A stretch of DNA of 64,000 nucleotides, taken from positions 2,623,014 through 2,687,013 of the forward strand of contig NC_021313.1 of assembly GCF_000403645.1 (NCBI RefSeq), given 5' to 3'. Each line of letters begins with the position of its first letter. The first letter of the stretch is position 1. Positions 18,509-34,154 of this stretch are shown here, piece after piece. The notes below the pieces were generated by a model that saw only the letters and a program-made list of their open reading frames with translations, was not told the DNA's origin and did no database searches. This DNA comes from Salinarchaeum sp. Harcht-Bsk1. Its GTDB lineage: Archaea > Halobacteriota > Halobacteria > Halobacteriales > Salinarchaeaceae. Both the position numbers and the translations under genes were made by a program.

Positions 18509-18583
18509 GCTCCGATGGTGTAGTCCGGCCAATCATATTGCCCTCTCACGGCAATGACCAGGGTTCGAATCCCTGTCGGAGCA
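18509..18583 (+). tRNA. tRNA-Glu (anticodon CTC)
   Basis: This 75-nt cloverleaf has acceptor stem GCTCCGA paired with TCGGAGC and discriminator A at 18583. The anticodon stem is TTGCC/GGCAA with loop CTCTCAC, giving anticodon CTC (Glu, codon GAG). The T-arm is CAGGG-TTCGAAT-CCCTG. No intron is visible and CCA is not encoded. The 3' half is the target of a later 23-bp duplication. Confidence 0.97.
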
Positions 18584-18704
18584 TCCTGCGACGAACGTAC
18601 GTGAGGAGCGGATGCTCCAGAAGGGATTCGAAGCTCGCGAGTCGCAGCGACCGAGCGTCGCGAGGTCGACCGTCTCACCTCGGGTTCGAATCCCTGTCGG
18701 AGCA
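18561..18704 (+). repeat. Duplicated tRNA-Glu 3' end (att-like scar)
   Basis: The last 23 nt of the tRNA gene (18561-18583) are repeated exactly at 18682-18704, without the rest of the tRNA. Between them, TGCTCCAGAAGGGATTCGAA (18613-18632) is an inverted, 17/20-identical copy of the same sequence. Such direct repeats of a tRNA 3' end are the attL/attR footprints of tyrosine-recombinase integration. Only 98 bp separate the copies and no integrase is present, so either the element was lost or the second copy is one edge of a larger, eroded island to the right. Confidence 0.75.
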
Positions 18705-18888: not shown

Positions 18889-19458
18889 GTGAAGGCGCAG
18901 TTACGGCGCATCCGCCGGAAACGTCATTCCTCTAATCGGAGTTCCAACAATGAACATGGAAGCGGGTCAGCTAGTAACACTCAGGATCTCAAGGAAATAG
19001 CAGATGAGCTAGATGAGTCTGAGTCTACGCATCATCAGCGGGAGAAAGTCAGAACGGAGCTTGGCCGGGATGAGGATGACGGCGAAGCCGATTCACGCAA
19101 CGAACTCTTCGTCGCCCACCACGTCCACGCAGTCAGCGACGACGGCGCCGCGTTCGTGCAAGCAAATCAGGATCGCCTTGCCGACATCATCGCCGAGAAC
19201 GAGATGACTCTCCGCACGTTCTGGAACAGACTCAACCACCCCAATCGAGATATCCAGAAGTACACTGGCCCCGACGACGTGAAAGACGTACTACAGAACA
19301 AGCACGGCTCGGATTACTGGAAGCGTCTCTACTTCGGCTGGGAAGTCGACACCGACCAGAACGCTAATACGATCGTCGAAGACACTGTCGAGAAGCTGAC
19401 CGACTTAGATCGGCTGTTCCACGACCCGGCAGACGGATTAGACGAGATGCCGGTCTAA
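18889..19458 (+). CDS. Hypothetical protein of the AT-richer island
   Basis: This is a 189-aa protein with a basic, Ser/Asn-rich first 30 residues, then an acidic helical middle (DLKEIADELDESEST) and a conserved-looking C-terminal half (NELFVAHHVHAVSDDGAAF ... MTLRTFWNRLNHP ... YTGPDDVKDVLQNKHG). I recognise no domain. The start is uncertain: GTG 18889 opens the frame, but ATGs at 18851 and 18858 are better placed relative to a TATA-like ACTTTAGC (18828-18835). Those ATGs open other frames that stop after 13 and 25 codons, so a 5' frameshift is possible. Codon use is less GC-biased than in the flanking core genes. Confidence 0.5.
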   Translation: MKAQLRRIRRKRHSSNRSSNNEHGSGSASNTQDLKEIADELDESESTHHQREKVRTELGRDEDDGEADSRNELFVAHHVHAVSDDGAAFVQANQDRLADIIAENEMTLRTFWNRLNHPNRDIQKYTGPDDVKDVLQNKHGSDYWKRLYFGWEVDTDQNANTIVEDTVEKLTDLDRLFHDPADGLDEMPV

Positions 19459-19575: not shown

Positions 19576-21009
19576 TCACTCGCGATAGGACGCCGGGAGT
19601 TCGTCGTTCGAGGGTTCGCCGTTGTCTTCGTACATCCAGATCACATTGTGGACGTCCAACATCGAAACGGATTGATCTCCACCGAGCTCTTCGACGGCAC
19701 TCTGGATTTCATCGCGGAACGTTCGCAGCGCGTTCACTACCGACCGGTACTGACGCGGACGAAAACCGGACTCGTAGTCATCTAACGTAGTCTTCGCTTC
19801 AACGAACTCGGCTGTCTTCGATGGTGGGAGTCCGATTTGCTCATCGGGTTCACAGACCATCATGAGCGACGTCGCCATCCGTTCGATCGACCCGGGGCTA
19901 CGCCCCTCTTCTTCCTTGATGTGGATCGTATGTTCGCGGAAGAGTCGAAGCCGTGTGACGTCTGGTTTCGAACTGTCGAAGAACTCTGAGAGAACGGCGC
20001 TGGCCTCTTCTGGATTCGAAGTAAAGTATTCCTCTACATCGTTCCAGACGTACTGCCCCCACTGCCCGCCCATGAGGTACTCGATCACCGATGCATTGAG
20101 ATTCGTCGCTTCTCGGTCGGTCAAAGCCTTGAATAACGGCTCAATCTCCTCTGCTTCGAGATCATCGAGCGTAAACTCGTCACGAATCGTTTCCTCGACG
20201 TAGTCACAGTATTCGCGTTTCCAGTTTTCCCAGTACCCGCCGAAGAACCCGGACACGTCGGGCTCGTCGTACGCATCGTTAACCTTCCCATGGGCGTACG
20301 CATACGCCAACGGCCCGATGTCGACCAGTTCAACTGGGTCAGGCCGCCCTCTGTCCATTGCAGAGCCACCGTACAGTCCCCGGTAAAACTCGCTGTACGG
20401 GCCCTTCAGCTGTGCTGAGAGATCACCACTATCTAACGTCGCAAAAGCATGGAAGAGCTGTTCCATCTCCGCTCGGACGGATGCTTCATGCTCTGTTCCC
20501 TTCGTCGCGTGCCCAACAACGTCGAAATACGTCTCTCGAAACGCCTCCAACACGTCCATCCGTTCGGCGAAATCACCACTGCACTCCACTCCGAACCACC
20601 GTAGCGCTTCACAGGCTTCTCGTGTCAGAATCCCTGGTTCATCTGTATTACTACGGGAGTAGAGTTCCCAGAGCGCCCATTTCCACGTCAGCGTGTCCTC
20701 CCAGGCAGCATCGTACTCAGAGGCAGCCGCGAGCGTTTCCAAGAATGACGCGAAGTCCTGATAGTCTTCAAACCCCGCCAGCAGGATTGCCTGGCCTGGA
20801 TTGTCCGCTGAATCGACCGCGTCGGCACTCCAGAACTCCTCAAGTGTTTCCTCACACGGGTTTTCGAGAAATGCTTCCAGGCGATTCTGGAATACCTGCT
20901 GCCGGTTGGGGGTGAACGAGTAGCCTGGCCCCGCTGGTTCTTCCGCAATCATCTCTCCCCACGCACGGAGCATCCCCTCTCCGCGAGGCCGAAGCACGGC
21001 AGTCGACAT
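19576..21009 (-). CDS. Unknown 477-aa island protein
   Basis: This encodes a 477-aa acidic, aromatic-rich soluble protein. Features include WGEMIAEEPAGPGYSF near the N-terminus, WKWALWELYSRSN, EYLMGGQWGQYVWNDVEEYF and a C-terminal LRTFRDEIQSAV...MLDVHNVIWMYED. I recognise no catalytic motif, membrane segment or zinc site. The C-terminal block faintly recalls helical domains attached to type IV restriction (McrB-like) proteins, but this is a guess. The start is ATG 21009 rather than TTG 21036. It lies 248 nt downstream of the giant ATPase gene on the same strand and shares its AT-richer composition, so the two may be one module. Confidence 0.65.
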   Translation of the reverse strand: MSTAVLRPRGEGMLRAWGEMIAEEPAGPGYSFTPNRQQVFQNRLEAFLENPCEETLEEFWSADAVDSADNPGQAILLAGFEDYQDFASFLETLAAASEYDAAWEDTLTWKWALWELYSRSNTDEPGILTREACEALRWFGVECSGDFAERMDVLEAFRETYFDVVGHATKGTEHEASVRAEMEQLFHAFATLDSGDLSAQLKGPYSEFYRGLYGGSAMDRGRPDPVELVDIGPLAYAYAHGKVNDAYDEPDVSGFFGGYWENWKREYCDYVEETIRDEFTLDDLEAEEIEPLFKALTDREATNLNASVIEYLMGGQWGQYVWNDVEEYFTSNPEEASAVLSEFFDSSKPDVTRLRLFREHTIHIKEEEGRSPGSIERMATSLMMVCEPDEQIGLPPSKTAEFVEAKTTLDDYESGFRPRQYRSVVNALRTFRDEIQSAVEELGGDQSVSMLDVHNVIWMYEDNGEPSNDELPASYRE

Positions 21010-21257
21010 GACTTGCCCATCAAACCCGTCTATCAAAAACTCTCTTGCCGATGTCTTCCAAGATTAACTGTTTGGATACCACCTTCACCACTCAGCATCA
21101 TCACGCTCGTACACTTGGCCCTCGACGCCCATCTGCGCCTTTCAACACTGGTTTATTCAATTGGGGAAACGCGTAGCCCTCTCCCAGGATATCTTAGCCC
21201 TATTGATCCGTGGCCAGGGGTTTCAATGCCTGGAGTGCCATGGTTAGAGGGTAAACC

Positions 21258-24200
21258 CTAGTCAGTCTCGGTCACATCGGCGAGCGGCGTTTCTTGGATT
21301 TCTCCTCGCTTCCGGAAGTTCGTGATGTCGACTTTCACCTCTCGCTTCGTCTCTGAGTGTTCCTCCGTTTCGGGGCGGAGTAATTCAAACGGGTTACGAA
21401 TAGCACGTACATATGGGTCGGAGCGGATGTCCTTCCGCAGGTTTCCAACGATGTATAGGTAGAATCGGTCGCTCACGTCTTTGGTTCGGGCAGTTTTCCA
21501 CTCGTTCCACGAGATCCCTGGTGTTCGCGTATCGTGCCCGGAGGACTTCAACTCGATTAACCGATCAGCCTTCCCCGTATCTGGATTCACTGTGAGGATG
21601 TCGAATCCCGGGTAGGGAAGCGGGAGTCCGACCTCTTCGACCAGCTTCTTGATCACGGGTGCCGCATTAGAGTCACTCCTACGAGCATCTTGTATCGCCT
21701 GCTCTGTATGGACCTTGAACACGTACTCCTCGGGCGATGTGTCACGGCTCTCGAAGTCGAATTCTTCCCGGAGCCGCGCCCGTTCATACTCCATCGTGAT
21801 CTGCATCCCTAATTTGTCGACTACAGTGCGATATTTCATGTCCGGGTTGCTACCGCCCCCTTGAGATTCCCTGGTGTCTGAATAGTCGTCCTCATCTCCG
21901 TTCTCCTCGGCAGGTTCAACAATGATTGTCTCTCGATCACCGGCAATCGCCAATTCCCCTGGTTCGTAGATCGGGCGTTCCTGCCGCTGAGGCGTCCGGT
22001 CTTTGATCGGTTCTCTTGCCGGGTCTGGGGAATTGTCTGGCTTGTACTCCACGTCCTCATCGGTGTAGTCGCTCGGATTCACTATCGGTGCCTCGAGGGG
22101 CTCCGCTGTGTCCTCACGGAGTGCTTGTCGCTTGCTTTCGATCTCATCGATCGATGACGGTGCTCCGGCCAGACGCAGATAATCTCGACGGTCACTGTCA
22201 TCCGTGGCGGTGAGCATCGTCACGACGCCTTCGAATTGCGTGACATTCAACGCTCCACAGAGTGCCCGCGCTAAATATCGATACTGTTCGTCGTCGTTTT
22301 CTGCAGCCCTGACGATCGGTATCGCGGGTTCCGATCGAGCACGATCACGACGGTCAAGATAGTACGGGGGATTCGAAGTCACGGGCGCCACGTTCTCGCC
22401 TGGGAACTCGTAATCCACCTCGATCGAGTCGACGATCTCCAAATCGGTGCAGAATGCTCTCAAGCCGTTTAGGTCACGTGTGATCAATTCCTGGGACTGG
22501 CGCTCAGCTTCGAGTCGGCAGAGGATGTACGGTGCAGCTCGTTTCAGTTCCTGGATGAGCTGTTCCCGCACCGCGGGGCGTTCATCGAGGAACCGTGGTG
22601 TCGAATCCGCAGCTCTCTCCAGATCACGCATCCCGAAGTGCACCCCGAATCCGACGGCTTCTGTCTCCTGAAGCACAAATACCGGCAGGCTGGGGATCGG
22701 GATCTGCTCAAGAACGTCCGGGGCGCTAACGAAGTACGCATCTTGCGCTCGAATGATCTCGAACTCCCCATCGGGATACCGGCACAGGACGCCGACATCC
22801 TCCAGCCCTGTCTGACTCGTTTGCCAGTCTTCGTCCTTGATGTCTCGCTGTTGATCAGGAAGGGCTGGCAGCAGTTCACTTGTGTAGCGGTACGCCGATT
22901 TGATCTGGCGAAGCGAGTCCCCAACCGCAGCGGTGGCTGTCAGATTCCCATCGGCATCGGTGAACGTGTTCGCAATCGTCCCGACGATCGTCCGCGCATC
23001 GCGCGGCCGGAATGTAGACTGAGATAATTCCCGACGAACGCCGACTGCGTCGAAGAACCCTGCTGCATCCCGCGTTTGCTCTGCCACGTTACTCGGAATC
23101 ACAGGCAACAGCGAATTACCGCTCAGCTGAAACCGGGAGTGGACGCTCTCGGTCGGTAACCACGCTTCATCAGGCCGTCGGACACCGTGCTCCGTCGGGC
23201 ACCAGCGAGCGTTCTTCAGTTGCCACAGCCACAAGTTGAGTCCAACGCGACGCTTTTCGCTCTCCGCAGGGCAATTCTGGTTCCGTCGTCCAAATGATTG
23301 TACGTCGTGTGTGGCGAGCACTGGATTCCGGTATTTCTGGAAGCTCTCTCGCCACCACGCACCAATGTGCTTGAGAAGTTGCTCGCCGACGCTAGAGGAT
23401 ACCGATTCTCCTTCCACCGTGTTCTCAACATTTCCTGCCGCCTCAAGGAACTGACTCAAGAATTCGATGCTTTGCATCTGGTAGATCGAGTCGTACTCCC
23501 CGCGCTGCCCACCAGCCTGATCCAAGCACTCCGTGAGATGGTGCTGGTATTCCGTCCACAGGTCCTCATCTAACGCGTCCAATTCCGAGCGGGCGTCCGG
23601 TCGTTCAATACCAATCGTCGATCGCAGGCGACGTCGAGTCTGCGGATCGAAAAACGGCTTCAACCGGAGATGCGGAGATACCCCCAACCACTGGAAGAAA
23701 TTCCGCCACTCGTCAAACTCAGACTCCTCCCCAATATCAGGTTCATCCACCACGTCTGCAGGGTGTTCGATCCCCGGGAATGTGTCGGGAGGCGCCAGGT
23801 AGTGAGCATCTTCGATGCCGGCCGCGTCGAATAACGGTTCGACCTGCGTGGCCGCGCTCGCATCCGGCTGCCAATCCGATCCGAAGTACACGCGACAGGC
23901 AGGCTCCCAGTCCCCGTCTCTCGTCGGCACCGGGAGGAGACAAAGCCGATGCAGTGTCTGGGTTCGCTCGATATGCGGTAATGGAGCAGCCGCATCTACT
24001 GATTCGCCGGCAAGCCGCCACACGAGTTCCAGAATACTGCGCTTCCGAAGCGGCGTGTCATCAGCATCGAGTTGCTGCGGACTCGGCAGGACAGGGAACA
24101 ATGCTGCTCGAGCAACCTCTTCGAATTCGAACTCATTGACACCCCATATCGACTCTAACGCGGGTTTCAACTCCGTAACGAGATTACTTTGAGTCCGTGA

Positions 24201-26102
24201 ATCAACGTTTGCCTTCGGACGGTACAATGGTGGACTCAGGAATTCAATTCCCGGGAGATCAACATCCGGAATATCGTTCTGCGGCGGGAAGAACAACTCG
24301 CGAACCCCGCCGCTGTCACGCGCAACATGCCTGACGATGCCCGCCTCAGTTGGTCGACCAACCGGGAACACCGACGCACCCTGGCACGCAGCTTTGAACT
24401 CGCTCAACACGTCATCCTGATCGCTAATTGTCTCGAACACCCAGATCAACACTTGCAGGATTGGGTCGACAGCCAATTCATCAACAGGCTCCGGATACTT
24501 GTTCAGCGGAGAACGCGAGTCCGACACAGCCCCTAACACGAGAGGGATATCCCGAGCCGAAAGAGTATCTGCACCGAGTGAATCCAAAACCCGTGCGTGG
24601 CTTGGGGTCAACAATTTCGTCTGGAGAAAATACCCCTGGCTATCGACTTCACTGACTTCCAATCGGGTCGCACCGTGGATCCGCGCAACGTACCCGGCGA
24701 TATCCGGCCGGGTCTCGGCGTAATAGGGAATGACTGCCTCCCGGATCGAACGTAACGAAGCGTCTCCATCTGCATCCGAAAACGCCGGCAGAAATGCCAC
24801 ATCGGCGAACGCAGTTTTCACGGCGTTGATAAACCGCCCTTCCAGTGAGTCGTCATCATTCCGAGATTCTTCAGTAAGGTGAGTGAAATCGAGCCACCCC
24901 AGGATTTCCCCGGCACTGGTGGCGGTTTCCTTCGCGTACCCCACGACATCTGTCGCCAGTAAATCGGCGATTTGCTCAACGAGGAATCCGTTATAGTTCT
25001 CTGCGCCGGCAGTCACGTCGACACTGGTTCTGGAAATCTTCGTGTAGAATGCCCCATTGGCAAGCACCGGTATCGGGCATCGCTCTTCAGTTGGGAGGAA
25101 TACGTGGAGAAACGGTCGTTCACGCAACCGCTTTAGATGGATGCCATCGGATTCACGAGTAACACGAAGTGCGACACCAATCCGCGTGTGATCGACTTCC
25201 CCCCAAGTATTCGCATCGATGCCACCCGTATTGTTGCCGATCGGGATTCGCAGCCGCGAAAACAACGCGAATGTCGTACTGGCCGACTCCTGAGTTTCGG
25301 CTTCATGTTCGACGGTCACGAACTCCAGATCGCTTTGCACGCTCTCGGTTCGCTTCACATCTCGTTGGATTCGCCATTCTTCAGTCGATCCGTCGAGACT
25401 GAGTTCTAGCTCCTCGAGGTTCTGGAGAAACACCGCGGTGTGTTCATCGAGTTCTGAAATAGCAGTGATCGTATCCTCCCGGATACTGGAACTCTTCAAC
25501 TCGAATCGAAATACAGTGTTGTACTCCTGCTCCAGTAATTCCTGGACACGAGGCGGCGTCTCGTCTGGCGGGAATGGAAGCCGCATCAGCGGAATGCCGT
25601 CGATATCAGGTTCCGACCACTCATCATGTTCCTCAACCGCGTCGAGAATCGCGTCTCGGGCATCACCGCGATCGAACTCAAACGAAACGCCAGTCGAGAA
25701 CACCTGCGGTCGGTTCGTCAGATCGAGAACGGAGCTGAATCCGCGACCCTTGTGACCGATAGGAGCTTCCTGTTCGGCGTCGCTACTCGCCTCTTTCGTC
25801 GTATAACTCATCGTGCAGAGGGCCTTCACATCGTCTTCATCGATCTGACGCCCAGTATTCGCGACGAGTAACGTCTCCCCGTCCAACTCGAACCTGACCT
25901 TCCTCGTTCCTTCACTGTCCGACATCGCATCGTCGGCGTTCTGGATCAGTTCAAACGCGAACCGTCTATGATAGTCCGCCTGAATCTGCCCTTCGTCGCT
26001 GTAATGAGCGTTGATATCCTCGGGCGTACTCTGGTAAGAACGAAGACGTCTTTCACGAAACCCGGAGAGAAATTCAGATTCTTCACTGACCCCTGATGAC
26101 AT
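21258..26102 (-). CDS. Giant sacsin-like HATPase / DUF3883 protein
   Basis: This is a 1614-aa cytoplasmic protein. The N-terminus is a GHKL (HSP90/sacsin-type) ATPase: N-box ELIQNADDA at 51-59, LLVANTGRQI near 79-88, and the glycine lid IGHKGRGFSSVL at 115-126. About 1200 residues without a clear domain follow. The end is a DUF3883 domain, a PD-(D/E)XK-like nuclease fold, with GFDILTVN near 1499 and DRLIELKSSG near 1515-1524, giving a D...ExK pattern. Related proteins are frequent in prokaryotic defence islands and probably combine ATP-driven conformational change with DNA cleavage. It is large, AT-richer than the core and next to other accessory genes. The function is inferred, not shown. 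Confidence 0.82.
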   Translation of the reverse strand: MSSGVSEESEFLSGFRERRLRSYQSTPEDINAHYSDEGQIQADYHRRFAFELIQNADDAMSDSEGTRKVRFELDGETLLVANTGRQIDEDDVKALCTMSYTTKEASSDAEQEAPIGHKGRGFSSVLDLTNRPQVFSTGVSFEFDRGDARDAILDAVEEHDEWSEPDIDGIPLMRLPFPPDETPPRVQELLEQEYNTVFRFELKSSSIREDTITAISELDEHTAVFLQNLEELELSLDGSTEEWRIQRDVKRTESVQSDLEFVTVEHEAETQESASTTFALFSRLRIPIGNNTGGIDANTWGEVDHTRIGVALRVTRESDGIHLKRLRERPFLHVFLPTEERCPIPVLANGAFYTKISRTSVDVTAGAENYNGFLVEQIADLLATDVVGYAKETATSAGEILGWLDFTHLTEESRNDDDSLEGRFINAVKTAFADVAFLPAFSDADGDASLRSIREAVIPYYAETRPDIAGYVARIHGATRLEVSEVDSQGYFLQTKLLTPSHARVLDSLGADTLSARDIPLVLGAVSDSRSPLNKYPEPVDELAVDPILQVLIWVFETISDQDDVLSEFKAACQGASVFPVGRPTEAGIVRHVARDSGGVRELFFPPQNDIPDVDLPGIEFLSPPLYRPKANVDSRTQSNLVTELKPALESIWGVNEFEFEEVARAALFPVLPSPQQLDADDTPLRKRSILELVWRLAGESVDAAAPLPHIERTQTLHRLCLLPVPTRDGDWEPACRVYFGSDWQPDASAATQVEPLFDAAGIEDAHYLAPPDTFPGIEHPADVVDEPDIGEESEFDEWRNFFQWLGVSPHLRLKPFFDPQTRRRLRSTIGIERPDARSELDALDEDLWTEYQHHLTECLDQAGGQRGEYDSIYQMQSIEFLSQFLEAAGNVENTVEGESVSSSVGEQLLKHIGAWWRESFQKYRNPVLATHDVQSFGRRNQNCPAESEKRRVGLNLWLWQLKNARWCPTEHGVRRPDEAWLPTESVHSRFQLSGNSLLPVIPSNVAEQTRDAAGFFDAVGVRRELSQSTFRPRDARTIVGTIANTFTDADGNLTATAAVGDSLRQIKSAYRYTSELLPALPDQQRDIKDEDWQTSQTGLEDVGVLCRYPDGEFEIIRAQDAYFVSAPDVLEQIPIPSLPVFVLQETEAVGFGVHFGMRDLERAADSTPRFLDERPAVREQLIQELKRAAPYILCRLEAERQSQELITRDLNGLRAFCTDLEIVDSIEVDYEFPGENVAPVTSNPPYYLDRRDRARSEPAIPIVRAAENDDEQYRYLARALCGALNVTQFEGVVTMLTATDDSDRRDYLRLAGAPSSIDEIESKRQALREDTAEPLEAPIVNPSDYTDEDVEYKPDNSPDPAREPIKDRTPQRQERPIYEPGELAIAGDRETIIVEPAEENGDEDDYSDTRESQGGGSNPDMKYRTVVDKLGMQITMEYERARLREEFDFESRDTSPEEYVFKVHTEQAIQDARRSDSNAAPVIKKLVEEVGLPLPYPGFDILTVNPDTGKADRLIELKSSGHDTRTPGISWNEWKTARTKDVSDRFYLYIVGNLRKDIRSDPYVRAIRNPFELLRPETEEHSETKREVKVDITNFRKRGEIQETPLADVTETD

Positions 26103-26557
26103 GATCCCCTCAATTCAGCGGCAGAACAAAAAAGCTGAGGCACACCCACGGAACCATTCTAACCACAGCCGGTGAGACACGCAGTCTACGCCACGTCACT
26201 CCCGGCGCCGCTTACCCCTTGAACGAATCCCCCTCTGCCTTTCTCGCCACCATCCTCATCGGGCGGCCATACCTCCTCCCGCTCCCAAGCTGTTTGACAC
26301 CATCCTGACCGCTCTCCACCGCCGGTTCACCGACGGTACCCAGTCCCTGTTGCTCCTCACCGTCGCCAACCCCCGTCGACGGTCCGTCCGACCCAGCAGG
26401 TGACTCGCCCGCTGCACCGATCGCATCGCCCTGCTCTAACGCCTCCAACGGGAACGCGTACGCTTGCGCTCGCCGCTGCTTGTACCACGACGTCCGCTCC
26501 GCGATATCCATCACCTCGATCACCGTCGACCTGTGGAACGATGCACCGGGGACATGG
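26103..26557. other. Junction region between island and folE remnant
   Basis: These 455 nt lack a complete conserved gene. They start with AT-rich sequence upstream of the giant ATPase gene, which should hold its promoter, and contain a degenerate minus-strand frame described separately. The change of base composition at about 26.5 kb marks an insertion boundary. Confidence 0.45.
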
Positions 26558-26568
26558 ATGACAGACAA
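26212..26568 (-). pseudogene. Degenerate gene fragment
   Basis: The minus frame reads STVIEVMDIAERTSWYKQRR then AQAYAFPLEALEQGDAIG before dissolving into Gly/Ser-rich sequence. The only start is a TTG at 26568, inside the folE remnant of the other strand, which looks accidental. The first 40 residues look like real protein (amphipathic helices, perhaps a DNA-binding or transposase fragment). This may be the tail of a gene whose front was replaced at the recombination point. The identity is unknown. Confidence 0.3.
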
Positions 26569-26952
26569 TCAGTTTCACTACGAGGAGACGACGGCCGTTC
26601 CAGTGGAGGACAGCGAAATCGACCTCGAGAAGGCTCGGCGGGGGACGAGACTCCTGCTCGAGGCAATCGGGGAGGAACCCAACGAGGCCCCGCTAACCGA
26701 GACGTTTGAACGGCGGGGTCCCGAAATACTTGCGACACTGACCGAGGGAACGCGCGAAACCGCCAAACCCGACCTTCGAACCTTCGAGGCCGATGCCGAC
26801 GAACTCGTCGTCAAGACGGAGATCCCCATCTACAGTCTCTGCGAGCATCATCTGCTCCCGTTCTTCGGCGTCGCGCATATTGACTACCGTCCCGGTGAGG
26901 AGATCGTCGGACTCTCGAAACTTCCCGCTACGTGCGCTGGCATTCACGCCGG
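26558..26952 (+). pseudogene. folE: GTP cyclohydrolase I, frameshifted and truncated
   Basis: The frame from ATG 26558 (MTDNQFHYEET) gives a clear FolE N-terminal part: ARRGTRLLLEAIGE, the zinc/active-site block IPIYSLCEHHLLPFFGVAHI and VGLSKLP. After that the frame breaks. Restoring one C in the CCC at 26924-26926 gives SKLPRYVRWHSRR, as in intact enzymes, so a 1-nt deletion is present. Even in the corrected frame the rest of the enzyme, including the later zinc Cys, is missing. FolE makes dihydroneopterin triphosphate for pterin or deazaguanine synthesis; this copy cannot. A different frame downstream (26953-27137) contains VALGHIHKEAA, perhaps a fragment of another gene. Confidence 0.75.
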
Positions 26953-27160
26953 AAAGTACGATTTCGATCGACGCCGTGGCGCTCGGTCACATTCACAAGG
27001 AAGCTGCGGCGACGTTCAGGCAGTGCACGGCGTTTTGTAACGGGGCGACGGAGCGGTTGACTGCTGACCTCGAGCCGAGCGTGGACACGATTACTATCGA
27101 AGACGGCGAACTGTCGCGCACCCCGCACCGACTTTGATATTCACGCGGTCACGGTGGTAG

Positions 27161-30100
27161 TTACAGTTCCGTGCTCGCCCAGTCGAGCAGTTCGTCGACG
27201 TCTATCCGTGTTACCGTCCGGTGAGGGACGTCGCCGGTGTCGGTGAAGATGAGGGCGATGGTGACGTGCTCGGCGTCTGGATCGTTCTGGAAGAGTGCGC
27301 CGGCGTAGGCGAGGAGCTGTGGTAGATAGTGCTCGGTGTAGCTCGCGATGGATTCGCCGTCGAGGTCGCTTGTTTTGTAGTCGGCGACGAGGTAACCTGT
27401 GTCAGTGACGGAGAGGTGATCGATGTCGCCAACGACTTTGGCGGCGTCCAGGTCCAGCGTGACGGTGAGTTCGGCGTGACGAGAGCGGATCTCGTGCATA
27501 GCTTCGAGCTCGTCGAGTGCGGTGAGTCCGGCGTCAGCGTGACGCTCGATGAGGCTGATGTCGGTTTCGGTGAGTGCGTCGGGATCGTCGACGCTGCGGC
27601 GAATGATGGTTGGCCAGTCCTCGCGTGGCGGGGTGAGTTCGCAGAGTTTGTGGACGATCGTGCCGAGCGTGGCACTGTTGATGGCGGGGTCGGCGTCGAT
27701 GTGCTCGGGTCCGGTTCCGTCCCCGCCATCTTCCTGGAGGAGATCTGGGCGGGATTGGGTGTCTGCGAGTTGGTCGCGAAATTGGGAGGCTGAGAGGCGT
27801 TGTTTCGCGGGTTGCCGGGCGGGTTCGGGGAGTTCGATGTCGGTTGGGACGGCGTCGTCTCCGCCTGGTGGGGTCCAGTCGCCGGGTTCTGGTGGGCGGC
27901 GGATCGTGTACTGCCCTTCGTCGAGGTCGGCGGTGATTGCGTCGTGCTGGGAGAGTTGCGGGACGAGGTCCGGGATGTCGAGCATCGTGGGTTGGACCCA
28001 ATCTTGCCAGGAACTGGCGTCGGCCCAGTCGCCGGCGTCGGATAATCCAGATTCCGTATCGTCGTCGATGCTGTGCGTGCCGGTGAGGACGAGGTGGTCG
28101 CGGGCGCGTGTGGCGGCGACGTAGAGGAGGCGGCGTTGCTCGGCGCGTTCGCGGTCGCGGTAGTGTTCGCGGACGTGCGTGTACATCGCGGAGTTCGTAT
28201 CGTCGAACACGGTGTCGATGCTCGGTGCTTTCAATCCGAGGAGGGGCTCGTCGTTGATGCGTTCGAAGTGAGCTTTGGTGATGCGTGATTGGTGGTTGAA
28301 TCCGCGGGTGATCTCGGGAACGATCACGATCGGGAATTCGAGGCCTTTCGCGGAATGAATGGTGCGGAGCTGGACGCCGTCGATGTCGCCGGGGATGGTT
28401 GCTTCGCTCGGGTCGTCGGTGCCGTCGCGGGCGCGTTGGATTCGGTTGAGGAGCGCGGTGACGGATCGGGCGTTGCCTTCCTCCCAGTTGCGGAGTTGTT
28501 GGCGGAATTTTTCGACGTTGGCGACGGCTTGCTGCGGGCGGTCGTCGGCACCGATGCTGACGAGATACGCGGTGTCGTCGATGACGCGGGAGATGAGGGC
28601 GCTCCACTGTCCGACGGCCGGGTCCGGGCCGGTGCCGGCGTCGGTGCGCCACTCGCGGATCTGCTCGCGGGCGGCTTGCAGTTCGGGCGTCGCGGTTTCG
28701 AGAGCGTTCCACAGTGCCGTGTCGGCGGTGTATGCGTTGGCGAGTTCGTTGTCGGTGAAGCCGAACAGCGGGGAGCGCAGGACGCCGTACAGCGGGATGT
28801 CGGCGTGCGGGTCTTCGAGCACGCGGAGCAGGTTGATGAGTGGGCGGACTTCCGGCGTGTCGTAGAAGCCGCTGCCGGCGAGGTTCGTGTACGGGATGTT
28901 CTCGGCGTCGAGTGCGCGTTCGAACGCGTCGAGGCGGCGGGATGATCGGAACAGGAGTGCGACGTGCTCGGGTTGCGCGGTGACGTATTCCTCAGCGTCC
29001 GGGCCGTACACCTCGGTGTCGCCGGCGAAGAGGTTCGTGAGGTGCGCGGTGACGGCCGTGGCTTCGCGTTCGGCGCGGGAGAGGTACTCGTCGTCCGTGA
29101 ACCACGTGTCCTCGAGGCCGAGCGCGGCGTCTGCGTCTTCGTCGTCGGGGACGACCAGGTACTCGACGGTGCCGTCGACGTCGGGGCCGTCCGGGCGTTC
29201 GGCGGTGAGGCGTTGCGGCTCGGCTTCGTACGGTTCGTGGGTGCTGTCGTCTTCCCGACCGGCGGGTTGGAGGAGTTCCTCGAACAGGTCGTTGATCGTG
29301 TCGAGGGTGGGTGCGACGGTGCGGAAGTTCCCGGTGAGTTCGAGGTCTCCGTCGACGCCGGCCGGGTTGTCGTCGATGAGCGTGGTGCGGGCGTCGCGGA
29401 ACTGCGTGACGTCGGCATCGCGGAACCGGTAGATGCTCTGTTTTTCGTCGCCGACGAGGAACACGTTCTGCCCGTCGAATCGGTCAGGGTCGTCGCCGCT
29501 TAACAGTTTGATGAGCTGCCATTGCCGCGGGTCGGTGTCCTGGACTTCGTCGACCATGATGTACTCGAACTCCTCACGGAGTGTGCGGCGCGCGTCGTCG
29601 TTGGTTTCGAGGAAGTCGATGGCGCCGGTGATGAGGTCGGAGTAGTCCAGTGCGGTGCGGCGTCGTTTCCGGCGTTCGTACTCGGCGCGGGTGACCTGGA
29701 AGACGCGGGCGAGTGCGATGGCTTGCCTGGCAGCGTTCCGTTCGACGGCGGGGTCGTGATCGAGATTCCGATCTTCGGGTTCGACGAGCGCGGTGAGTTT
29801 GTCGAGCGCGTCTTGAAGCGCGTCTTGCTCGGTTTCGTGGCCGTTCCCGTGCCAGTTCCCTTTGGTGCCTGCGTAGTAGTGGGATCTCGAGTACAGGGTG
29901 CCGGCGTTGCTCGTGACGCCGTTGGCGAGGGTGAGGAAGAATCGTTGCCGGTCGGCTGCGGTTCCGTCGTCGGTGTGCGCGCGAGTCTCGGTGAGGATGC
30001 CGGCGAGGTCCTCGAGGAGTTCCCTCCCGTTGTCGTCGGCCGGGACGTCGAGATCCTCCGCAGCGATGCGGCGTATCTCTTCGATGGCGGTTTGCGCGTC

Positions 30101-30868
30101 TTGGTTGTCCATGAGCTGGTCGGCCTCGGTGACCGGGATGGAGACGTCGATGAACTCCGCGCAGTACGCTTGATATGCTTCGGCGGTGCTGTCGGCCCAC
30201 CGGTCGGCCCACTCGGTGCTGTCCGGGCGTTCGCTGAACAGGCTGGTGAGCGCCGAGTGCAGTGTCGATCGGGAGTACAGTTGGGTGAGCGTGGCGAGCT
30301 CGTCGTGCGTGTCCCACGGCCATTCCGCAGTGTGGGTTTGCTCGTTCTGGTCGCGTGGGGCGAGGCGTCCGGCCGGCGCTGGCGGGCCGTTTTCGACGCC
30401 GTACTGGTCGAGCACGGCCGTGACGGTCTCGCTCAGCAGGTCGTCTGCGTCGCCTTCGTCGAGCGTTTCGAATTCGGGGTGGACGTCGGCTTCGACGGCG
30501 AACTCGCGGAGGATGCGGCTGCAGAACGCGTGGATCGTGTGGATGTACGCGTCTTCGAGATCGTCTTTCGCGGTCCGCCACCGGTCGTACTCGTCGCCGG
30601 TGGCGTCGGCGAGTTCCTCGTCGATCACGTCCCGGATCTCGTCGCGGAGTTCGCTGGTCGCGTCGGTCGTGAACGTGAGCGTCGGGACGTTTTGCGGCCC
30701 GATGTCCGGGTTGGATGCCAGGATCTCCCGGTACCTTTCTTTGAGCGTCGTTGTTTTGCCGGTGCCGGCGCCGGCCGTGATTGCGATGTTCCGGTCGAGT
30801 TTCAGCGCGTCTTGCTGCTCGTCGGTGAGTGACACGTCCGCTTCGTCCGCTGAAGCGTCTTCACGCAT
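27161..30868 (-). CDS. AddA/RecB-like helicase-nuclease
   Basis: This is a 1235-aa UvrD-superfamily (SF1) helicase. Walker A is AGAGTGKTT (residues 32-40); motif II is MVDEVQDTDPRQW; later motifs include VFLVGDEKQSIYRFRDAD and QLRTIHSAKGLEFPIVIVPE, and the C-terminal motif is RLLYVAATRARDHLVLTG. The C-terminus is a RecB-type PD-(D/E)XK nuclease: VVGDIDHL with Asp near 1150, VADYKTS (Asp 1163, Lys 1165) and YLPQLLAYAG. It unwinds and resects double-strand ends as a partner of the AddB-like subunit. ATG 30868 is chosen because it overlaps the AddB-like stop by 8 nt. AddAB is mainly bacterial, and in archaea it suggests transfer or a defence/repair role. Confidence 0.88.
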   Translation of the reverse strand: MREDASADEADVSLTDEQQDALKLDRNIAITAGAGTGKTTTLKERYREILASNPDIGPQNVPTLTFTTDATSELRDEIRDVIDEELADATGDEYDRWRTAKDDLEDAYIHTIHAFCSRILREFAVEADVHPEFETLDEGDADDLLSETVTAVLDQYGVENGPPAPAGRLAPRDQNEQTHTAEWPWDTHDELATLTQLYSRSTLHSALTSLFSERPDSTEWADRWADSTAEAYQAYCAEFIDVSIPVTEADQLMDNQDAQTAIEEIRRIAAEDLDVPADDNGRELLEDLAGILTETRAHTDDGTAADRQRFFLTLANGVTSNAGTLYSRSHYYAGTKGNWHGNGHETEQDALQDALDKLTALVEPEDRNLDHDPAVERNAARQAIALARVFQVTRAEYERRKRRRTALDYSDLITGAIDFLETNDDARRTLREEFEYIMVDEVQDTDPRQWQLIKLLSGDDPDRFDGQNVFLVGDEKQSIYRFRDADVTQFRDARTTLIDDNPAGVDGDLELTGNFRTVAPTLDTINDLFEELLQPAGREDDSTHEPYEAEPQRLTAERPDGPDVDGTVEYLVVPDDEDADAALGLEDTWFTDDEYLSRAEREATAVTAHLTNLFAGDTEVYGPDAEEYVTAQPEHVALLFRSSRRLDAFERALDAENIPYTNLAGSGFYDTPEVRPLINLLRVLEDPHADIPLYGVLRSPLFGFTDNELANAYTADTALWNALETATPELQAAREQIREWRTDAGTGPDPAVGQWSALISRVIDDTAYLVSIGADDRPQQAVANVEKFRQQLRNWEEGNARSVTALLNRIQRARDGTDDPSEATIPGDIDGVQLRTIHSAKGLEFPIVIVPEITRGFNHQSRITKAHFERINDEPLLGLKAPSIDTVFDDTNSAMYTHVREHYRDRERAEQRRLLYVAATRARDHLVLTGTHSIDDDTESGLSDAGDWADASSWQDWVQPTMLDIPDLVPQLSQHDAITADLDEGQYTIRRPPEPGDWTPPGGDDAVPTDIELPEPARQPAKQRLSASQFRDQLADTQSRPDLLQEDGGDGTGPEHIDADPAINSATLGTIVHKLCELTPPREDWPTIIRRSVDDPDALTETDISLIERHADAGLTALDELEAMHEIRSRHAELTVTLDLDAAKVVGDIDHLSVTDTGYLVADYKTSDLDGESIASYTEHYLPQLLAYAGALFQNDPDAEHVTIALIFTDTGDVPHRTVTRIDVDELLDWASTEL

Positions 30869-33800
30869 CGGTGTCACCCCCAGGAAGTTCGTCCAGCACG
30901 TCCCCTGCGCCGGCGCCCGCGGGAACGTACGCGTGGTGCCCGGTGTCGGTGACGTGATCGACCACGTCGTATCGGCGGTGGTGTCGAACGTCGCAAATGT
31001 CGCTGAACTCGCAGTAGGAGCACTGTGCAGTGCGTTCACCGACGACAGCCGGGTGGAACGCGCCATTCTCGATCGCTCCTGTGACCGCGTCGAGTCGGTC
31101 CGGGATCACGTCGGTGATGAACGCGTCGTAGTCGATGTCGTCGAACCGGTCGGCGAGGCTGCGCCGCGGTTTGACCTGCGGGTTGTCGTTGATGACGTAG
31201 TACCGTGCGGCGACGTCGGACGGGGTGAGGTCGGTGTCGACGAGTTCCGGGGCGGCGAGTGAGTAGATTGGGAGTTGGAAGTCGATCCCGTCGCGCGCCT
31301 GGTTTTCTCGTCGTCGTGCCCCGTTGACGCTGGATGCTTTGTAGTCGAAGACGGTGAGTCCGTCGGGCGTGGTGTCGACGCGGTCGACGATCCCGCCGAC
31401 TGGAACGGTGCGGCCGTCCGGGAGTTGCACGCCGTCGTCGTCGCCGAGTTCTGCTTCGAAGTAGCTGGGTCGGTGCCCGTCTTCGGCGAAGTCGAGTTCC
31501 GTGTCGAGGAACTGCGCGAACGTGCCGGAAGGGTCGTCGGTGCTGTCGTTGCCCGGCGGGGAGTAGTACTCGTTTTCGGTCGGGGAGGCCAGGCCGCTGA
31601 ACAGTGCGTGCAGGGTTTTCTCGCCGAACACGTCGTGCAGCGAGACGTCTTCATCGTCGACGGCGTCTCGTGCCGCGGCGAGGAGGCCTTGCTCGAGATC
31701 ATGCTGGTCGTGGTCGGTCAGGTCGACGGGGTCGCCGGGTTCGGTTTGGAGGTCGCGGTAGAATGTTTCGACGGTTTCGTGGACGACCGAGCCGAGCGTC
31801 AACGGGTCGATGCCTGGTTCGATGTCGTCCTCCTCGTCGAGACCCCACCCGGTGCTGAGGAGGTATTTGAACCCGCACTTGGCGTACTTCGTGAGGCGAC
31901 TGTAACTGTACGGCGCGCGCGTCAGCTTCCCGTCCAGCGATTCTATCGATCCCGTTGTGAGTTGCCCGTCGTGGGCGGTGAGTTCCTGGACGCCGCGGTG
32001 CGCGCCGCATTCCGCGCCGCGCGTCGCAGTTGCAACGAACGCGTCGGTGACGTGCCCGTTCTCTCGAGCTGCTGCGAGGGCTGGTTCTAGCGCTGCCGGA
32101 GGTGCGCCGGCCATGTCGCGTTGCAGGTCTTCTCTCGATGCGCGTGGCTCGTCGTGAAGGGTTCCAGTCGGTTCCAAGCCGGTGACGCGGGCGAGTTCGT
32201 CGACGAACGGTGAGACGAGTAACGGATCGTCGTCGATCGTCGTTTCTGGTGTCGTGATGTGGACGCGCTGTGCGTTCCCGATGAGCGTCCCGAACCGGTA
32301 CCGGTCCACGTCTCGTTGCGCATGGCGTTCGAACACGCCGAGTTGCTCGCCCAGAGTTTGGAAGAACCGTGGGCGCGTTTCGCTACCGGAGAGGTGCTGT
32401 GCCGTCGCACCGAGCACATACAGTTCCTCGAAATCCGCGCCCGGCGCGTCCTGGAGTCCGATGATTTCGACGTTCCCGGCAGTCACCTGGGTTGGCGACG
32501 GAACGCGGACACCTTCGAGTGCTGTCCCGACTTCGCCGAGCGGGTCATCGGGATCGAATTCCTCGCAAACGGTCTGGACGGACTCCAGGATTGCGTCGAC
32601 GCGACGCACGGCTCTGGCCTCGTACCCGGCGTTGAAATCAGCATTCTCATCGAGCGTCTCCACCGTACTTTCGAGCCCGATATGCCCGAGCAACTCGCGG
32701 ACTGCCGGGACAACAGCATCGGCCTCCGCCTCCCGAACAGCGGCGACGCGGTCGAGGAAGGCATCGATGCCGGAAGCGGACGCGTCGAGTTCGTCGACAT
32801 ACGCGTCGATCGCGGTCGTGTACAGGCGGCGCTGGACGTCCGCGAGTTCGACCGCGTCCGTCCCTGGGATGTCGACGAGCGGGTTGGTTGCCAGTTCTGC
32901 GATGCGGTCGCTGCGCGGGTACTCACAGCACTCGATGGCGTCCAGGACGGCGCGGCCGGCGTACGTTCGTTCGAGCAGGATGCTGACCTTGTACGCGTGA
33001 TCGATGCCGTACGCGTCGAACACGTCCGCGATCCCATCCCGGTAGGAGAGCAACCCGGGAGCGAGTACGAGCAAGTCGTCTGGCTGCCGATCGGTGGTTG
33101 CGAGTTCCTCGCGGATGCGCCGGGCGACGTGACGGATTTCTCGATCCGGTGTCGGCGCTTCGTGCCAGGACAGCTCCGCGGGCGGGGCGTCAGGCGTCTC
33201 GACTGGCTGGTACAGGCGTGTCGTGACGTCTCGAAGCGGGAGCGGATCGGCTGCTTCGACGCGTTCCTCCTCGAACCCCATGCCGCGTAGCGCAGCGATC
33301 GTGTCAGCTACGGCCGTGCTGATACCGGCCGTCGGTGCTTCCGGCGTGACGGTCGGCATGAGGACGCGGACGGGGAAGTCCTCCGCAAGCCGCTCGATGA
33401 CAGCGAGCTCGGTCGCTGACGGGTCCTCGAGATTAGAGATGACGATCGCATCGAGATGCGGCAGCACAGTCCTCAAAGACTGGTCGGTCTCTGCGACGGC
33501 GGCGAGTTTCTCGTTTTGTGTCTTCGACTCTGGGTGCGCGATGCGTCCGCGAAGCTCCAGATACCCTTCGAACACCTCGGTGAGAACCGTTTGCTGGTGC
33601 TGGGTACAGGTACTCGAATCGAGTCGATCTTCGAGGGTTGCGATGTCTCGGACGCCGTCGGCTTCGAGCTCCCGCAACAGCTCAGAAATCGACGGCGTGT
33701 GCTGGCCGGCGTCGCGAAGCACGTCGTTCTCGTCGAGTCGGTGGAGCGCTTGCTCGATCGTGCGGCGTCGTTCGAGCGTTTCGATTCCGGGATACGGGCC

Positions 33801-34031
33801 GTACAGTCGCTCGTGAATCGTGAGCGCGAAATCGGCGATTCCGGTGACGGTCAGGCGAAGTGCATCGTGCTCCTCGCGCCACGCGGTAGCGATCGCGTCG
33901 CGCTGGTGGGCGTTGGATTCGAGAAATACTGCGCTCTCTGGTGATTCTGCAGTGTTCGTATCGAGCCAGTTGAAGGCGTGATCTCGAAGGGCAGTGTAGG
34001 ACGGACTATAGCAGATGCATCCCCCAACCAT
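30861..34031 (-). CDS. AddB-like nuclease subunit with predicted Fe-S cluster
   Basis: This is a 1056-aa partner of the AddA-like protein. The N-terminus (MVGGCICYSPSYTALRD) has no GxxGxGKT, so its helicase domain is probably not an ATPase. The C-terminal nuclease has VGGIVDRVD (Asp near 883), VFDYKAS (Asp 896, Lys 898) and FQLPIYSLA. Four Cys frame the nuclease: Cys 719 in AKCGFKYLL and Cys 1004, 1007 and 1013 in CSYCEFSDIC. This is the 4Fe-4S arrangement of AddB and Cas4. It is encoded first and translationally coupled to the AddA-like gene. The start is ATG 34031; the frame extends further but becomes basic. Confidence 0.85.
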   Translation of the reverse strand: MVGGCICYSPSYTALRDHAFNWLDTNTAESPESAVFLESNAHQRDAIATAWREEHDALRLTVTGIADFALTIHERLYGPYPGIETLERRRTIEQALHRLDENDVLRDAGQHTPSISELLRELEADGVRDIATLEDRLDSSTCTQHQQTVLTEVFEGYLELRGRIAHPESKTQNEKLAAVAETDQSLRTVLPHLDAIVISNLEDPSATELAVIERLAEDFPVRVLMPTVTPEAPTAGISTAVADTIAALRGMGFEEERVEAADPLPLRDVTTRLYQPVETPDAPPAELSWHEAPTPDREIRHVARRIREELATTDRQPDDLLVLAPGLLSYRDGIADVFDAYGIDHAYKVSILLERTYAGRAVLDAIECCEYPRSDRIAELATNPLVDIPGTDAVELADVQRRLYTTAIDAYVDELDASASGIDAFLDRVAAVREAEADAVVPAVRELLGHIGLESTVETLDENADFNAGYEARAVRRVDAILESVQTVCEEFDPDDPLGEVGTALEGVRVPSPTQVTAGNVEIIGLQDAPGADFEELYVLGATAQHLSGSETRPRFFQTLGEQLGVFERHAQRDVDRYRFGTLIGNAQRVHITTPETTIDDDPLLVSPFVDELARVTGLEPTGTLHDEPRASREDLQRDMAGAPPAALEPALAAARENGHVTDAFVATATRGAECGAHRGVQELTAHDGQLTTGSIESLDGKLTRAPYSYSRLTKYAKCGFKYLLSTGWGLDEEDDIEPGIDPLTLGSVVHETVETFYRDLQTEPGDPVDLTDHDQHDLEQGLLAAARDAVDDEDVSLHDVFGEKTLHALFSGLASPTENEYYSPPGNDSTDDPSGTFAQFLDTELDFAEDGHRPSYFEAELGDDDGVQLPDGRTVPVGGIVDRVDTTPDGLTVFDYKASSVNGARRRENQARDGIDFQLPIYSLAAPELVDTDLTPSDVAARYYVINDNPQVKPRRSLADRFDDIDYDAFITDVIPDRLDAVTGAIENGAFHPAVVGERTAQCSYCEFSDICDVRHHRRYDVVDHVTDTGHHAYVPAGAGAGDVLDELPGGDTDA

Positions 34032-34154
34032 TGGATGGACAGTGAGTCGCTGGCGACCTACTTGGGGATTGTGGCGAGGGTTCCTCCGCCCGCTCCGACA
34101 CCTCGACATTCGGCCGTGTTATTTCAGGGGCTGAAAGACCGCACTGAACTACGT

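What the first reader, a model, noticed from the sequence alone, without database searches (positions are those of the whole stretch)
19576..26102. Giant sacsin-like ATPase with DUF3883 nuclease-like end, plus an unknown 477-aa partner
GHKL motifs at the N-terminus and a GFDI...IELKS core at the C-terminus are visible; about 1200 residues between are unassigned. The downstream gene on the same strand has no recognisable domain and no known relative to me. The pair may be an uncharacterised defence module; the 189-aa gene upstream of the pair could belong too.
Basis: partly seen in the sequence, partly recalled or inferred. Interest (0 to 1): 0.65.

Follow-up and report, generated by a model that had tools for sequence, protein, structure and literature searches.

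The report
Archaeal Tiamat-like nuclease beside orphan reader
A salt-loving archaeon carries, in a gene-swapping hot spot beside a tRNA gene, a giant Hsp90-like ATPase with a nuclease tail that belongs to a known family of antiviral proteins, next to an unrelated orphan protein built from two modules otherwise found on the front of McrBC-type restriction enzymes.

Summary
The 1614-aa gene is a full-length, intact member of a haloarchaeal family (21 intact relatives aligned, window included). It has a sacsin/Hsp90-type ATPase, an Hsp90 middle-like domain by fold, and a DUF3883 (NOV_C) nuclease-like end. The ATPase and nuclease motif residues are invariant in all 21, and all 21 match PADLOC's TmtA models. 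It is therefore a haloarchaeal member of the Tiamat family, a known kind, usually without a fixed neighbour. The 477-aa gene has no library match but does have relatives. It is a stand-alone two-module protein, intact in 12 of 392 haloarchaeal genomes. Its N half (10 cases) or C half (6), never both, also forms the front end of McrB-like AAA ATPases, some of which carry EVE or MrcB_N reader domains too. The 189-aa ORF is a truncated remnant. All lie in a tRNA-Glu/AddAB-bounded hot spot with different cargo in the sister species. The most interesting part is the stand-alone McrB-type protein. Its function and the ATPase's activity are inferred, not shown.

The parts
21258..26102 (-). Tiamat-like (TmtA family) giant ATPase-nuclease, 1614 aa
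   Evidence: PADLOC TmtA 1.3e-88 over residues 9-1325; 21/21 haloarchaeal copies match TmtA; NOV_C and sacsin ATPase domains
25680..25967 (-). sacsin/GHKL ATP-binding core (residues 46-141)
   Evidence: NCBIfam NF047352 1.5e-19, Pfam SACS 1.2e-5; E51, N55, D58, G84, G116, K118-G121 invariant in 21 copies
24363..26102 (-). region folding like Hsp90 N-terminal plus middle domains (about residues 1-580; limit approximate)
   Evidence: AlphaFold2 model of residues 1-1195 (mean pLDDT 73); Foldseek against PDB: the 50 listed matches are all Hsp90-family chains or complexes, best E 3.9e-7, probability 1.0
21429..21653 (-). NOV_C / DUF3883 PD-(D/E)XK-like nuclease end (residues 1484-1558)
   Evidence: Pfam 3.5e-7; G1499-F-D1501 ... 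I-E1517-x-K1519 invariant in 21 copies
19576..21009 (-). 477-aa stand-alone two-module protein (ATG start; an in-frame TTG at 21036 gives 486 aa)
   Evidence: relatives align from the ATG; purifying selection, dN/dS ~0.06
20326..21009 (-). N module of the 477-aa protein
   Evidence: found without the C module in front of the AAA_5 domain in 10 intact McrB-like proteins
19609..20325 (-). C module of the 477-aa protein
   Evidence: found without the N module in front of the AAA_5 domain in 6 intact McrB-like proteins
18889..19458 (+). 189-aa ORF: truncated remnant; residues 70-189 match the C-terminus of a ~440-aa family
   Evidence: S. laminariae 77% over 70-189, another genome 45% over 70-188 within a 449-aa ORF
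18509..18583 (+). tRNA-Glu(CTC), left border of the hot spot
   Evidence: ARAGORN
18682..18704 (+). exact 23-nt repeat of the tRNA-Glu 3' end (integration-scar-like)
   Evidence: only two copies in the genome
27161..34109 (-). AddA-like (27161-31066) and AddB-like (30861-34109) helicase-nuclease genes, right border of the hot spot
   Evidence: Pfam UvrD, PDDEXK_1; NCBIfam AddA models, below their cut-offs; syntenic in S. laminariae

Best explanation
Two independent genes sit side by side in a chromosomal exchange hot spot. (1) The 1614-aa protein is a haloarchaeal Tiamat (TmtA-family) defence protein acting on its own: an Hsp90-like ATPase clamp (shown by sequence and fold comparison) carries a long sacsin-like scaffold and a C-terminal PD-(D/E)XK-type DUF3883 nuclease (domain and motif shown, activity inferred). 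A signal of infection, unknown, is inferred to drive ATP-dependent clamp closure that licenses the nuclease to cut nucleic acid. (2) The 477-aa protein is a non-enzymatic, all-helical, two-module reader. Each module is homologous to a domain at the front of haloarchaeal McrB-like ATPases (shown); by position and company (EVE, MrcB_N) these are inferred to recognise foreign or modified DNA. It is inferred to work in trans or alone, not as a dedicated partner of the ATPase.
For: ATPase: TmtA match 1.3e-88 and 21/21 copies; invariant GHKL and GFD...IExK residues; Hsp90 N+M-like fold; no conserved neighbour among 21 loci, as expected of a one-gene system. Reader: 13 intact stand-alone copies in 12 genomes; N module on 10 and C module on 6 intact McrB-like proteins, none with both; 16/16 of those carry AAA_5, 7 also EVE and 2 MrcB_N; in five loci (L044, L050, L057, L058, L059) the next gene belongs to one cluster, whose scanned member is Pfam McrBC at 3e-51; purifying selection.
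Against: No activity was tested. The TmtA models' best stretch stops at residue ~1325, so the nuclease end is assigned by Pfam and motifs, and only 12/21 copies reach E<=0.001 for NOV_C. The model of residues 700-1195 is partly of low confidence. The 477-aa protein has no fold match, so 'reader' rests only on the position of its modules in McrB-like proteins. Neighbourhoods were read only within 20-kb stretches.
Confidence: 0.6

Rival explanations
1. The ATPase and the 477-aa protein form one two-gene system in this lineage, with the McrB-type reader acting as specificity subunit for the Tiamat-like nuclease.
For: Same strand, 221-248 nt apart. Tiamat and type IV restriction are the two most frequent systems in one Pseudomonas island hot spot (PMC12629846).
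Against: Adjacency not seen at any of the 20 other full-length ATPase loci, nor at the other 12 stand-alone copies of the 477-aa family. The gap is long enough for a separate promoter. In the sister species the 477-aa family is at the same site without the ATPase.
Confidence: 0.12
2. The 477-aa gene is just a remnant of an McrB gene that lost its ATPase domain.
For: Modules are homologous to McrB N-terminal regions; fragments and broken copies exist (L039, L043, L062, L065).
Against: 13 intact copies share the same N+C arrangement, which no McrB-like protein found here has; dN/dS ~0.06.
Confidence: 0.07
3. The stand-alone reader is a counter-defence or self-protection factor: it occupies the DNA or protein target of McrBC-like enzymes and blocks them.
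For: Same modules without any effector; found in defence islands and sometimes near tRNA genes.
Against: No copy among the phage records; McrC (PF10117) is detected in only 4 of 13 genomes with a stand-alone copy, intact or broken, although a divergent McrC-position family would be missed by that model.
Confidence: 0.15
4. The giant ATPase is a host chaperone of the sacsin type rather than a defence protein.
For: Hsp90-like fold; sacsin acts as a chaperone (PMC3710099).
Against: Sporadic: full-length in about 22/392 genomes, sometimes on plasmids or beside Argonaute and helicase-nuclease genes; invariant nuclease-type residues.
Confidence: 0.1

Closest known systems
Tiamat (TmtA)
   Same: Best PADLOC match for the protein and all 20 aligned relatives; giant sacsin-type ATPase; mostly no fixed neighbour; Tiamat is already reported in archaea (20 of 382 complete archaeal genomes, cited in PMC13321033)
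   Different: Only 28-38% identical even to the other haloarchaeal copies; the best TmtA model (1538 positions) aligns to residues 9-1325 only; identity to an experimentally tested TmtA could not be measured here
Protein NO VEIN / sacsin (eukaryotic)
   Same: Sacsin-type ATP-binding domain; NOV_C C-terminus as in NO VEIN
   Different: No DnaJ, ubiquitin-like or HEPN domains of sacsin were detected
McrB N-terminal specificity regions of McrBC (type IV restriction)
   Same: Each half of the 477-aa protein is homologous to a region in front of the AAA_5 domain of haloarchaeal McrB-like proteins
   Different: No AAA/GTPase domain, no McrC next to it, two modules joined that are never joined in the McrB-like proteins found, not matched by Pfam MrcB_N (ADAM/DUF3578) or EVE
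McrBC census and CoCoNuTs (PMC11090510)
   Same: Describes modular specificity domains of McrB
   Different: A term search of that paper for haloarchaeal and stand-alone modules found nothing

Membership tests
Tiamat (TmtA) | Match to TmtA profile models | tested here: met
   1.3e-88; 21/21 copies
Tiamat (TmtA) | GHKL/sacsin ATPase motifs intact | tested here: met
   E51, N55, D58, G84, G116, K118-G121 invariant
Tiamat (TmtA) | Whole-length correspondence to the TmtA models | tested here: inconclusive
   best stretch covers 10-1139 of 1538 model positions
Tiamat (TmtA) | Single-gene system | tested here: met
   no neighbour shared by most loci; the commonest adjacent family noted occurs at 4 of 21. 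That Tiamat is single-gene is from general knowledge, the original paper was not readable here
Tiamat (TmtA) | Protects against viruses | not testable with these tools
   needs plaque assays
DUF3883 (NOV_C) nuclease-like domain | Profile match and conserved GFD...(I)ExK core | tested here: met
   3.5e-7; invariant in 21/21
McrBC (477-aa gene as McrB) | AAA+ GTPase domain | tested here: not met
   no AAA match; nearly the whole protein is accounted for by the two modules
McrBC (477-aa gene as McrB) | Adjacent McrC | tested here: not met
   no McrC next to it; the genome's single PF10117 match lies about 1.3 Mb away
McrB N-terminal modules | Sequence homology to the region before AAA_5 | tested here: met
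   module profiles match 16 intact AAA_5 proteins at 1e-39 to 1e-56
MrcB_N / ADAM (DUF3578) or EVE | Pfam profile match | tested here: not met
   no match in the 477-aa protein

The most novel reading that the evidence does not exclude
The 477-aa family is a stand-alone, two-headed reader that supplies target recognition in trans to nucleases of haloarchaeal defence islands: interchangeable McrB specificity modules freed from the ATPase, a kind of specificity subunit not described for type IV restriction as far as the searches here show.
Probability: 0.3. Interest if true: 0.55.

Novelty: new member of a known kind. Interest (0 to 1): 0.38.

Why it matters
The large protein adds a full-length, conserved haloarchaeal branch to Tiamat, a system that recent reviews list as mechanistically unknown, and the fold comparison gives a testable mechanism (Hsp90-like clamp controlling a PD-(D/E)XK end). 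The small protein shows that two unnamed haloarchaeal McrB front-end modules also exist as a stand-alone, selected two-module protein. If they bind modified DNA, that would be a new pair of base-reader folds.

Tried and rejected
Conserved-pair hypothesis: rejected by the neighbourhoods of 20 other full-length ATPase loci and of the stand-alone relatives of the small gene. Fold of the 477-aa protein: good-confidence all-helical model (mean pLDDT 81) but no PDB or viral fold at E<=0.001; repeated weak MutY glycosylase matches (probability 0.1-0.2, E>1) not believed. N and C modules as an internal duplication: rejected by profile comparison. Dependence of the stand-alone reader on McrBC: McrC detected in only 4 of 13 genomes. 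Reader next to AddAB-like helicase-nucleases: seen at L031, L037 and L062 (fragment) and at two McrB fusions, but that helicase-nuclease is present in 158/392 genomes, so it was not taken as a dedicated partner. The wide scan of 85k species with the small protein returned only the two nearest relatives, because only two short peptide patterns were usable, so absence outside haloarchaea is not shown.
Full report
WHERE IT IS. The window lies in a single 3,255,260-base contig, the length reported for Salinarchaeum sp. HArcht-Bsk1 (PMC3715672). The nearest relative searched is Salinarchaeum laminariae R26 (locus L132; genome handle G260). The finding sits in a stretch of lower G+C (54-60%, against about 60-70% over nearly all the rest of the window), between a tRNA-Glu gene at 18509-18583 and AddAB-like helicase-nuclease genes at 27161-34109. 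The 3' end of the tRNA is repeated exactly (23 nt) at 18682-18704, with no third copy in the genome. In S. laminariae the same tRNA-Glu and the same AddAB genes with their flank are present, but about 89 kb apart instead of about 8.5 kb (distance computed from the coordinates). The shared items in between (189-aa gene family, 477-aa gene fragment, the stretch 26251-26531) are in the same order, and the giant ATPase is absent. This is a gene-exchange hot spot.

THE GIANT PROTEIN. It has the sacsin-type ATP-binding domain (NCBIfam 1.5e-19) and NOV_C, formerly DUF3883 (Pfam 3.5e-7). Against PADLOC it matches TmtA of the Tiamat system at 1.3e-88, all nine TmtA models match, and the only other hit is a weak one (PD-T4-1, E 0.023, on the NOV_C end). 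Of 392 haloarchaeal genomes, 33 have some match; 21 intact full-length genes (window included) were aligned. In all 21 the GHKL residues E51, N55, D58, G84, G116 and K118-G121, and the nuclease-type residues G1499, F1500, D1501, I1516, E1517 and K1519, are invariant. All 21 match TmtA; all match the Pfam sacsin domain and 12 reach E<=0.001 for NOV_C. An AlphaFold2 model of residues 1-1195 (mean pLDDT 73) matches Hsp90-family structures over about 570-600 alignment columns, probability 1.0, best E 3.9e-7. So a good part of the 'unassigned' region is an Hsp90-like middle domain (inference from the alignment length). The rest shows recurring strand-pair and helix units with W/P-T-x-x-G-type motifs that resemble sacsin repeats; that resemblance is by eye only.

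NEIGHBOURS OF THE GIANT PROTEIN. No gene is shared by most loci. The commonest adjacent family noted is an ATPase with a DUF4143-type end at 4 of 21 loci, which also carry a family whose scanned member is a prokaryotic Argonaute. AddB-like genes lie within 15 kb in 4 of the 7 genomes that have both (window 4.8 kb, G320 3.8 kb, G391 6.7 kb, G002 14.3 kb) and 33 kb away in a fifth. By rough hand estimate about 1% per genome would be expected by chance. In the window AddAB is resident at the border of the hot spot, so this may only reflect shared islands. Relatives occur on haloarchaeal plasmids, several annotated as DUF3883 proteins, and more distantly on bacterial plasmids.

THE 477-AA PROTEIN. 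The libraries give nothing, but 33 of 392 haloarchaeal genomes contain a relative. Thirteen intact stand-alone copies (12 genomes, window included; one genome has two) align end to end, 27-60% identical to the window's. Profiles of the two halves show that the N half alone is present in 10 intact large proteins and the C half alone in 6, never both. All 16 carry AAA_5; 7 also carry EVE and 2 MrcB_N, domains described as modified-base readers in McrB proteins (PMC11090510). Five of the N-half proteins (L044, L050, L057, L058, L059) are followed by genes of one cluster, of which the one scanned is McrC (Pfam McrBC 3e-51). Most of the others are followed by a second family with a GRPDIV...GEVKYT motif that a profile comparison with McrC did not establish as related (probability 0.4%). 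The small protein is thus a stand-alone combination of two McrB-type front-end modules. It is under strong purifying selection (dN/dS about 0.06 against the S. laminariae fragment; synonymous sites saturated against the rest). Its model is all-helical (mean pLDDT 81) with no known fold.

ARE THEY A PAIR? No. None of the other 20 full-length ATPase loci contains either module within the stretch fetched, and no other locus of the 477-aa family contains a close relative of the giant ATPase; one McrB fusion locus (L057) has a remote sacsin-type protein about 5 kb away. In S. laminariae the small gene's remnant sits at the same site without the ATPase. The 221-248 nt between the two genes leaves room for a promoter, though none was tested. 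In a Pseudomonas island hot spot, Tiamat and type IV restriction are the most frequent systems, each in over three-quarters of instances (PMC12629846), so this kind of company has precedent as island sharing.

THE 189-AA ORF. Only its residues 70-189 have relatives: the C-terminus of a ~440-aa family with a DWVV..D...LVGYESKTG stretch that looks like a PD-(D/E)XK core (by eye). Its first ~70 residues are unrelated low-complexity sequence. It is a truncated remnant and not part of a module.

MECHANISM. Shown: domains, motif invariance, Hsp90-like fold, module sharing with McrB-like proteins, hot-spot location. Inferred: that ATP-driven clamp closure gates the nuclease; that the nuclease acts on viral nucleic acid; that the 477-aa modules read foreign or modified DNA; that the two genes act independently.

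VERDICT. The giant protein is a new haloarchaeal member of a known kind (Tiamat). The real addition is the identification of the 'unknown partner' as a stand-alone McrB-type two-module protein, probably a reader, whose function is open.

Noticed in passing
18509-18704: tRNA-Glu 3' end repeated exactly over 23 nt, 121 bases downstream, with no third copy in the genome; a scar-like att arrangement at the border of a hot spot that spans ~8.5 kb here and ~89 kb in S. laminariae.
   Followed up: partly
26558-27140: GTP cyclohydrolase I (folE)-like sequence on the + strand (identified by eye), frameshifted: the N-terminal part reads in one frame and the C-terminal part in another.
   Followed up: partly
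27161-34109: AddA/AddB-like helicase-nuclease pair; AddB relatives in 84 of 392 haloarchaeal genomes, within 15 kb of Tiamat-like genes in 4 of the 7 genomes with both.
   Followed up: partly
L031 11066-16541, L037 10746-16308, L054, L059, L062: A shorter AddB-like plus UvrD-like pair (868 + 958 aa in L031), its first gene present in 158 of 392 haloarchaeal genomes, sometimes directly beside the 477-aa family or McrB fusions with its modules.
   Followed up: partly
L045, L047-L049, L053-L056, L060, L061, L063, L064 (gene next to the McrB-like protein): A family of ~440-610 aa in the McrC position with a GRPDIV...GEVKYT motif; the member scanned has no Pfam match and the family showed no significant profile similarity to McrC; possibly a divergent McrC.
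   Followed up: partly
26251-26531: Stretch 76% identical in S. laminariae at the same hot spot, inside a decayed 118-aa ORF; identity unknown.
   Followed up: no
G000:C1:1341001-1341954 and 1366264-1369647 (outside the window): The genome's McrC match and a second AddB-like gene lie ~24 kb apart, perhaps another defence island.
   Followed up: no
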